Source of the DNA: Miltoncostaea oceani
GTDB taxonomy: Bacteria; Actinomycetota; Thermoleophilia; Miltoncostaeales; Miltoncostaeaceae
Assembly (NCBI RefSeq): GCF_018141545.1
Contig: NZ_CP064356.1
Coordinates: forward strand, 310,001 to 374,000
Length of the DNA stretch: 64,000 nt
Direction of reading: 5' to 3'
The position numbers and the translations under genes were made by a program. The notes beneath the pieces were generated by a model that was given only the letters and a program-made list of their open reading frames with translations, was not told where the DNA came from and ran no database searches. Of the stretch, positions 42,904-60,994 are shown in pieces; the stretch's first letter is position 1; each line of letters opens with the position of its first letter.

Positions 42904-42941
42904 GGGTCGTCACGGGTGGATAGGATCACCCGTGACGACCC
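42904..42941. promoter_or_regulatory. 38-bp dyad with 15-bp perfect arms over the bioY promoter and start
   Basis: Left arm GGGTCGTCACGGGTG (42904-42918), 8-base centre GATAGGAT, right arm CACCCGTGACGACCC (42927-42941). The centre holds TAGGAT (42921-42926), a -10 box, and the right arm holds the GTG start of bioY (42932), 5 bases after it. A dimer bound here would cover promoter, transcription start and start codon, as expected of a biotin repressor operator. If the transcript is leaderless, only the right arm is in the mRNA, so this acts as DNA rather than as an RNA hairpin. Confidence 0.75.
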
Positions 42942-43615
42942 GCCGACCCCCGGGAGGACCCATCTCCACCGACCGCTACGCGCCCGTCGAGGGCACGCTC
43001 CTCGACAGCGCCATCCCCCGCCCGTCCGCGCGCACCTCCGCGATCGCGCTCGACGTGGCCCTCGTCGCGAGCGGCGTGCTCCTGATGACGATCGCCTCGC
43101 AGATCAGCATCCCCTGGTACCCCGTGCCGCTCACGGGGGGCACCTTCGGCGCGCTCCTGATCGGTGGCCTCCTCGGCCTGCGCCGCGCGTTCCTGTCGCT
43201 CGCCGTCTACCTCGGCCTCGGCGTCCTCGGGCTCGGCGTGTTCGCCGAGTGGAGCGGCGGCTGGGACTACTTCACCGCGTCGACCGGCGGCTACCTCGTG
43301 GGCTACCTCGTCGCGGCGTGCATCGTCGGCTGGTTCGCCGACCGCGGCGCGACCCGCAGCATCACCACGATGATCGGCGTCATGCTCATCGCGAACGCGA
43401 CGATCTACCTGTTCGGCGCCTCCTGGCTCGCGAACTGGACGCCGCCCGGCGCCGAGGCGGCCCTCGGCTGGGAGGCCGCGTACGAGCTGGGCATCCAGCC
43501 GTTCGTGCCCGGCGACATCGTGAAGCTCTTCTTCGCCGCCTGCCTGCTCCCCGGCGGCTGGCAGCTCCTGCGCGTGCTCGACCGCGTGCGCGGCGACGCG
43601 CCCCGCGGGGGGTGA
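42932..43615 (+). CDS. bioY: Biotin transporter substrate-binding protein (BioY, ECF S component)
   Basis: 227 residues with six membrane helices after a 35-residue hydrophilic N-terminus. The BioY signature PLTGGTFGALLIGGLLGLRR, then GYLVGYLVAACIVGWFADRG and QPFVPGDIVKLFFAACLLPG near the end are diagnostic. It binds biotin and works with ECF energising subunits, none of which is in the window, or alone. GTG 42932 is leaderless and lies inside the dyad described separately. Its stop overlaps the next gene (GTGA). Confidence 0.93.
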   Translation: MTTRRPPGGPISTDRYAPVEGTLLDSAIPRPSARTSAIALDVALVASGVLLMTIASQISIPWYPVPLTGGTFGALLIGGLLGLRRAFLSLAVYLGLGVLGLGVFAEWSGGWDYFTASTGGYLVGYLVAACIVGWFADRGATRSITTMIGVMLIANATIYLFGASWLANWTPPGAEAALGWEAAYELGIQPFVPGDIVKLFFAACLLPGGWQLLRVLDRVRGDAPRGG

Positions 43616-44484
43616 TCGAGCTCCGGCTCGACGACCTGCGCGAGGCCTTCGGCTTCGGGGTGGCCGGCAACTTCGCCGGCCACCTCGAGCAGGCCGGCGA
43701 GGCCGCCGACTTCGCGGGCGTCGCGACCGGCGCCGGCGAGGCGCCGAAGGGCATCTTCCCCTGGTACGTCCCGGGGGCCGACACGTTCCTCGGGGTCTTC
43801 CCCCTGTCGCACGACCGGCTCGTCCGGCCCGCGGCGGAGGACGGCCCCGTCAACCTGCAGATCGAACCCGAGGTCGGCCTGCTGTGCGACGTCGTGTACG
43901 CACCCGACGGCGGGGTCGAGACGCTGGTGCCGCGGGCGCTCGGCGCGTTCGACGACTGCTCCATCCGCCGGCCCGGCGCGCCGAAGATCAGCCACAAGAA
44001 GAACTGGGGCCGCGACTCGAAGGGCGTCGCGCGCCGCATGTTCCCCGTGACCGACCTGTCGCCGGACGGGCCGACGGCCGGCTTCCGGCTCGCGAGCTTC
44101 CTGCGCCGCGACGGCGTCGCCCACGACTACGGCATCGACAGCCCGCTGCCCGGCTACTCGTACTACGGGGAGACCCTCCTCGCGTGGATGGCGGAGCGCC
44201 TGCGGGCCCAGGCGGGGTCGCCGGACACACCGCTCGAGCCGGTCGGCGAGTACCTCGCCGCCGCCGGGGGACCCGCCACGGTGCTGATCGGGATCGGGGC
44301 GACCCGCTACACGGCGCTCGGCGAGTCGACCTACCTGGAGCCGGGCGACGAGGCGATCGTGATCGTCTACGACGCGGCCGCCTCCCTACCCGAGGACGTC
44401 CGCGCCTCGGTCGCGGCCGGTGCGGAGGACACGCTCGCCCGCGCGTCCGTCCTGCGTCAGCGCGTGGTGTCCGCCGGGGGCTGA
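43612..44484 (+). CDS. DUF5718-like protein of unknown function
   Basis: 290 residues, soluble. The start reads FGFGVAGNFAGHLEQAGEAA, then GIFPWYVPG, LQIEPEVGLLCDVVY and APKISHKKNWGRDSKG, which I recognise as the DUF5718 pattern with moderate confidence. The N-terminal segment and PEVGLLCDV are reminiscent of fumarylacetoacetate-hydrolase-like folds (metal-binding Glu). Coupled to bioY by a GTGA overlap, so co-transcribed with biotin uptake. The 3' end overlaps the convergent alkyltransferase-like gene by 28 bases. Confidence 0.7.
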   Translation: MIELRLDDLREAFGFGVAGNFAGHLEQAGEAADFAGVATGAGEAPKGIFPWYVPGADTFLGVFPLSHDRLVRPAAEDGPVNLQIEPEVGLLCDVVYAPDGGVETLVPRALGAFDDCSIRRPGAPKISHKKNWGRDSKGVARRMFPVTDLSPDGPTAGFRLASFLRRDGVAHDYGIDSPLPGYSYYGETLLAWMAERLRAQAGSPDTPLEPVGEYLAAAGGPATVLIGIGATRYTALGESTYLEPGDEAIVIVYDAAASLPEDVRASVAAGAEDTLARASVLRQRVVSAGG

Positions 44485-60957: not shown

Positions 60958-60994
60958 GACCACCCGCCGGGGCGCGACGGCCCGGCGGGTGGTC
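60958..60994 (+). terminator. 14-bp perfect hairpin after the ferritin-like gene
   Basis: GACCACCCGCCGGG (60958-60971) pairs with CCCGGCGGGTGGTC (60981-60994) around a 9-base loop, 12 bases after the stop. It is followed by TCCCC rather than a T-run. The best terminator-like structure in the window. Confidence 0.7.

What the first reader, a model, noticed from the sequence alone, without database searches (positions are those of the whole stretch)
42904..42941. 38-bp perfect-armed dyad across the bioY promoter and start codon
Two 15-base perfect arms flank a centre containing the TAGGAT -10 box; the GTG start of bioY is inside the right arm. The arms are far longer than chance would give and cover all of promoter, transcription start and start codon. 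This is a candidate operator for a biotin-responsive repressor, possibly not one of the known BirA, BioR or BioQ sites.
Basis: partly seen in the sequence, partly recalled or inferred. Interest (0 to 1): 0.55.

Follow-up and report, generated by a model that had tools for sequence, protein, structure and literature searches.

The report
BirA-type biotin operator before bioY
A mirror-image DNA site over the promoter of a biotin-uptake gene, kept in many relatives of this bacterium, is most likely the switch by which the biotin-sensing protein BirA shuts the gene off; the gene itself seems to begin with the very rare start codon AUC.

Summary
The dyad is real: perfect 15-bp arms round GATAGGAT. 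Arm length alone is weak evidence window-wide (5 of 30 shuffles reach 15), though 0 of 4000 shuffles of the 106 bp before the gene do. Conservation settles it. GTCACGG-N14-CCGTGAC with at most 2 mismatches lies before bioY in 21 of 33 relatives' loci, reversed control 0 of 33; in three of these it lies between divergent birA and bioY. It also precedes bioB in three genomes. The own genome holds GTCACG-N16-CGTGAC once, at bioY. The site goes with an N-terminal HTH on the biotin ligase BirA: 15 of 16 HTH genomes have it, 0 of 11 HTH-less; four genomes checked afterwards lack the site, and three show ligase-only BirA, the fourth being cut. Own BirA has the HTH. Best reading: a BirA operator with a diverged half-site, covering the -10 box of bioY in a genome without detectable bioB. 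Binding and expression were not tested.

The parts
42904..42941 (.). full 38-bp dyad, 15-bp perfect arms, 8-nt centre
42909..42936 (.). conserved operator core GTCACGG-N14-CCGTGAC (predicted BirA site)
42921..42926 (+). TAGGAT, predicted -10 box in the operator spacer
   Evidence: TANNNT in the spacer of 23 of 25 operators listed (no control run); promoter activity inferred
42932..42934 (+).
   Evidence: out of frame in G001 and G003
42952..42957 (+). GGGAGG, predicted Shine-Dalgarno
   Evidence: GGAGG kept in all four genus members
42962..42964 (+). ATC, predicted bioY start codon
   Evidence: ATC-TCC 4 or 5 nt behind GGAGG in 4 of 4 genus genomes; four relatives aligned have ATG at nearly this place
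42962..43615 (+). bioY (Pfam BioY, 9.4e-35), with stop codon
   Evidence: scanned from 42932
43612..44484 (+). DUF5718 gene overlapping the end of bioY by 4 nt, probably co-transcribed
   Evidence: 6e-77; overlap; co-transcription inferred

Best explanation
The dyad is the operator of the biotin-dependent repressor BirA (biotin protein ligase with an N-terminal HTH). With enough biotin, BirA holds biotinyl-5'-AMP, dimerises, and its two HTH domains grip the two GTCACGG half-sites; the dimer then lies over the -10 box and the start of transcription and keeps RNA polymerase off, so BioY is not made. In this genome, which shows no bioB, bioY is the only place with the exact site. Translation then starts at an AUC codon behind a strong Shine-Dalgarno. 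Shown here: conservation, gene set, HTH co-occurrence, AUC context. Inferred: BirA binding, biotin response, transcription start, use of AUC.
For: Core with 2 or fewer mismatches of 14 before bioY in 21 of 33 loci; the reversed control never below 4, so 0 of 33. Same dyad before bioB in G002, G005, G007; the G007 run reads radical-SAM/BATS, class III aminotransferase, class I/II aminotransferase, AAA_26, HTH-BirA. Dyad between divergent birA and bioY in G006, G010, G017. One GTCACG-N16-CGTGAC in the own genome, at bioY; with TANNNT at the own offset, one in each of the 4 genus genomes, none in the other 57, control 0. HTH_11 in the own BirA, 3.4e-10. Operator versus HTH among 27 genomes: 15 both, 1 HTH only, 0 operator only, 11 neither, Fisher 9e-7. 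Afterwards, as a test: four more relatives without the site (best 6 mismatches) have BirA frames of 244, 245 and 259 aa that begin with the ligase, one cut. Delta-proteobacterial BirA sites such as TTGTcAACC-[N14]-aGTTgACAA share the spacer (PMC545781). Own genome has no bioB over the cut-off.
Against: Half-site TCGTCACGG agrees with TTGTAAACC in 4 of 9 letters (5 of 9 with TTGTcAACC), by hand. G012 has the HTH but a degenerate right arm (4 mismatches); at that threshold two HTH-less genomes (G018, G048) pass too. BirA was not found or was cut in 6 of the 21 operator genomes. The Fisher test ignores kinship; by genus it is 4 against 6 (1 in 210, by hand). The exact GTCACG-N16-CGTGAC also occurs 16 times away from bioY and bioB in the 61 genomes, reversed control 6 in all (places not examined). 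With 2 mismatches the own genome has 60 matches against 16 for the control, so weaker sites elsewhere are not excluded. G010 and G017 have no TANNNT in the spacer. No -35 box is evident by eye. The N14 spacer was built into the scoring pattern; only the free dyad search speaks for it independently.
Confidence: 0.87

Rival explanations
1. The dyad is a biotin-gene operator, but its reader is another DNA-binding protein (a BioQ-like TetR or a GntR), not BirA.
For: BioQ regulates biotin genes in Corynebacterium glutamicum and Mycobacterium smegmatis (seen as reference titles and one passage of PMC4877710); the half-site is diverged from the BirA consensus.
Against: The operator follows the HTH of BirA; birA and bioY diverge from the site in three genomes. 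BioQ-like proteins were not searched.
Confidence: 0.08
2. The dyad acts in RNA as a hairpin (attenuator or start-site lock), not as a DNA operator.
For: 15 perfect bp with an 8-nt loop would be a very stable hairpin (not folded here; arms).
Against: The predicted -10 box is the loop, so a transcript from that promoter would lack the left arm; no T-run follows the right arm; in relatives the perfect arms range from 7 to 16 bp on the same centre and core letters stay.
Confidence: 0.03
3. bioY is leaderless and starts at GTG 42932, inside the right arm. (This concerns the start codon and can be true together with the BirA reading.)
For: GTG is in frame in G000 and G002; it lies 6 nt behind the -10 box.
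Against: In G001 and G003 it is out of frame and no ATG, GTG or TTG lies in frame between the -10 box and ATC (G003 has a CTG there); a GGAGG stands before ATC in all four.
Confidence: 0.1

Closest known systems
BirA operator TTGTAAACC-[N14/15]-GGTTTACAA (passages of PMC545781; its source, Rodionov 2002, is not held)
   Same: inverted repeat with 14-bp spacer before biotin genes; sometimes between birA and its target; TGTcA core shared with several delta-proteobacterial sites
   Different: half-site TCGTCACGG (genus) or GTGTCACGG (genus g10): 4 of 9 letters agree with the consensus
bioY-BirA sites of Lactococcus lactis and Streptococcus suis (passages of PMC4861984 and PMC4877710)
   Same: BirA site over the bioY promoter or transcription start; biotin taken up, not made
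   Different: AT-rich half-sites, ATG start; gel shifts were done there, not here
Loss of the BirA HTH and of its regulon in alpha- and beta-proteobacteria (passages of PMC5343134)
   Same: regulon absent where BirA lacks the HTH
   Different: here seen among genera of one family
BioQ (TetR) regulons of Corynebacterium and Mycobacterium (reference titles only)
   Same: biotin genes under a repressor in Actinobacteria
   Different: separate repressor, not BirA
infC, which starts at AUU in E. coli (recalled)
   Same: natural start codon outside ATG/GTG/TTG
   Different: different gene and codon; no link to biotin known to me

Membership tests
BirA regulon (group II biotin protein ligase) | BirA has an N-terminal HTH besides the ligase domain | tested here: met
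   own BirA: HTH_11 at residues 9-63, 3.4e-10; BPL_LplA_LipB 8.7e-15
BirA regulon (group II biotin protein ligase) | site stands before biotin synthesis and/or uptake genes | tested here: met
   bioY in 21 of 33 loci scored, 0 of 4 scored later; bioB in G002, G005, G007
BirA regulon (group II biotin protein ligase) | inverted repeat with 14-15 bp between 9-nt half-sites | tested here: met
   free dyad search gives GTCACG-N16-CGTGAC on one centre, that is N14 between the 7-nt cores; the later scoring fixed N14, so it adds nothing here; consensus from PMC545781
Classical BirA box | half-site letters TTGTAAACC | tested here: not met
   TCGTCACGG, 4 of 9 letters, by hand; so filed as a variant, not as the classical box
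BirA regulon (group II biotin protein ligase) | biotinyl-AMP-dependent binding and repression | not testable with these tools
   needs purified BirA
BioQ regulon | TetR-type BioQ bound at bio promoters | not tested
   no search for BioQ-like proteins was made
BioR regulon | TTATMKATAA-type site (recalled, from no call) | tested here: not met
   no such letters in the dyad (by eye)

The most novel reading that the evidence does not exclude
In this genus bioY is under two brakes: a BirA operator whose half-site has shifted to GTCACGG together with the HTH of its BirA, and translation from an AUC codon kept in four species, which would hold a high-affinity vitamin transporter at a very low ceiling.
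Probability: 0.65. Interest if true: 0.5.

Novelty: new variant of a known kind. Interest (0 to 1): 0.4.

Why it matters
It gives a testable BirA regulon, with exact sites, to a family of the class Thermoleophilia; in the listings of four searches (all capped and none exhaustive) I saw no paper on one. Site and HTH come and go together among genera of one family, and the half-site letters have changed while spacer and genes stayed: a natural series for how a repressor and its site change together. A conserved AUC start on a transporter gene, if real, would be missed by gene callers that accept only ATG, GTG and TTG.

Tried and rejected
An RNA hairpin was rejected because the -10 box is the loop. 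A loose pattern (2 mismatches) hit all 61 genomes and was not used. The pattern had a wrong spacing (mine) and hit nothing; corrected. Whether infC also starts at a rare codon stayed open: no ATG or GTG in frame in front of the conserved N-terminus in the four genomes, a TTG is possible. Searches for AUC starts in print (listings only; 25 of 35 papers shown) gave mostly mitochondrial genomes, nothing on bioY. Dyads with 12-17 bp spacers before birA in 8 same-class genomes of other families showed no common site. Before bioB in 9 genomes (6 outside the family; G040 left out) one box resembling the consensus stood out, in G041; equally good or better dyads without that likeness also turned up there, for example in G038. 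In one search the G000-G003 codon comparison ignored a one-codon gap and was dropped. In one search the row of G034 was mis-parsed and dropped.

Full report
Observation. The 38-bp dyad is exactly as described. Its arms are the longest in the window for loops up to 30, but 5 of 30 Markov shuffles of the window held an arm of 15 or more, so length alone proves little; in 4000 shuffles of the 106 bp before the gene none did.

Setting. The gene is BioY (Pfam 9.4e-35), followed by a DUF5718 gene that overlaps its end. The named relatives found by a scan of genome contigs are metagenome-assembled genomes, two titled Solirubrobacterales, one Thermoleophilia, two actinobacterial without closer name, and one titled Bifidobacterium breve. 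The own genome (4.54 Mb, 3 contigs) has one BioY, one BirA and no bioB over the family cut-off, so it is probably a biotin auxotroph; bioA, bioF and bioD were not searched in it.

Conservation. Before bioY of many relatives the same dyad appears in a free search. Scored on GTCACGG-N14-CCGTGAC from 200 nt before to 15 nt behind the projected query start, 21 of 33 bioY loci have 2 or fewer mismatches of 14; the reversed pattern is never below 4. Of 46 genomes with a bioY match, 13 more distant or cut ones were not scored, nor was a second bioY of G022. Four further relatives at 48-50% identity (L034-L037), scored later, have no site (best 6 mismatches), so the tally with them is 21 of 37. A TANNNT stands in the spacer of 23 of 25 operators listed (22 bioY, among them the degenerate G012, and 3 bioB); G010 and G017 lack it; no control was run for that.

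Other genes with the site. The dyad precedes bioB in G002, G005 and G007. In G007 the run is bioB, class III aminotransferase, class I/II aminotransferase, an AAA_26 protein (bioA, bioF, bioD by order and domain, my reading) and BirA with HTH. In G006, G010 and G017 birA and bioY diverge with the site between them. Genome-wide, exact GTCACG-N16-CGTGAC occurs in 27 of 61 genomes, 35 places. By my count of the listed places, 19 of them in 18 genomes are the bioY or bioB sites, and 16 lie elsewhere and were not examined; the reversed control gave 6 places in 5 genomes. In the own genome the bioY site is the only one. With TANNNT at the own offset the pattern occurs once in each of the four genus genomes and in none of the other 57, control 0.

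The reader of the site. The own BirA has HTH_11 and ligase domains; of 36 BirA scanned 24 have HTH_11. Reading the alignment, 17 with an HTH belong to the family and share SRA(A/S)VHRHV(E/D/N)AL. Of 27 genomes with a scored bioY and a known BirA N-terminus, 15 have operator and HTH, 1 (G012) HTH with a degenerate operator, 11 neither, none operator without HTH (Fisher 9e-7, kinship ignored; one of the 11, G048, is outside the family). If 4 mismatches are allowed, G012 passes but so do the HTH-less G018 and G048 (Fisher 1.2e-5). In 6 operator genomes BirA was missing or cut. By genus the split is g1, g4, g8, g10 against g2, g6, g7, g9, g12, g23. A later check fits: in the genomes of the four site-less relatives the BirA frames are 244, 245 and 259 aa long and match the ligase profile from position 4 or 5, leaving no room for an HTH; the fourth is a fragment (judged by frame length, not scanned with Pfam).

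Comparison with what is known. The consensus TTGTAAACC-[N14/15]-GGTTTACAA and sites such as TTGTcAACC-[N14]-aGTTgACAA (Geobacter sulfurreducens bioB) were read in passages and a table of PMC545781. The spacer is the same; the half-site here keeps T.GTcA and loses the rest. Same-class genome G041, whose BirA has another recognition helix (TRSAVWKHIGKL), has TTGTCGACG-N14-AGTTGACAA before bioB. BirA binding to bioY promoters was tested by gel shift in L. lactis and S. suis (passages of PMC4861984 and PMC4877710). That the liganded E. coli BirA dimerises and binds both half-sites is from passages of PMC6391492. Loss of the regulon with loss of the HTH is described for Proteobacteria (passages of PMC5343134).

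Start codon. In all four genus genomes a GGAGG stands 4 or 5 nt before ATC-TCC. In G003 and G001 no ATG, GTG or TTG lies in frame between the -10 box and ATC; G003 has a CTG there, and G001's only upstream GTG lies before the promoter. The next such codons lie at codon 24 (G001, G002), 32 (G000) and 34 (G003), which would cut off a stretch alignable among the four. Between G001 and G002, 29 aligned codons of 2-31 differ in 5, all synonymous; counted ungapped over the first 30 codons, 5 synonymous and 1 not. In the five other pairs nonsynonymous changes outnumber synonymous ones, so that test is clear only for the closest pair. ATG at codon 24 could serve in G001 and G002 but has no counterpart in G000 and G003. 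Four relatives from two other genera aligned (G012, G013, G021, G035) start with ATG at nearly the same place. AUC is the best reading, unproven.

Mechanism. Repression by covering the -10 box and start point, relieved when biotin is scarce. Binding, response and start point are inferred.

Noticed in passing
window 43612-44484 (+): DUF5718 gene overlaps the end of bioY; perhaps translationally coupled and under the same operator.
   Followed up: no
L174-L177: infC of the four genus genomes shows no ATG or GTG in frame in front of the conserved N-terminus; TTG or a rarer codon is possible.
   Followed up: partly
L119, L145 (G002): One genus member has bioB (cut by the contig end) with the same operator, while the own genome shows no bioB: loss or gain within one genus.
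   Followed up: partly
L113 (G041): Box resembling the classical BirA consensus, TTGTCGACG-N14-AGTTGACAA, before bioB in another family of the class.
   Followed up: partly
L037 (CAMDLG010000006.1): Record titled Bifidobacterium breve encodes a BioY 48% identical to the one here; perhaps mislabelled.
   Followed up: no
window 60958-60994: Second perfect dyad, 14-bp arms with 9-nt centre.
   Followed up: no
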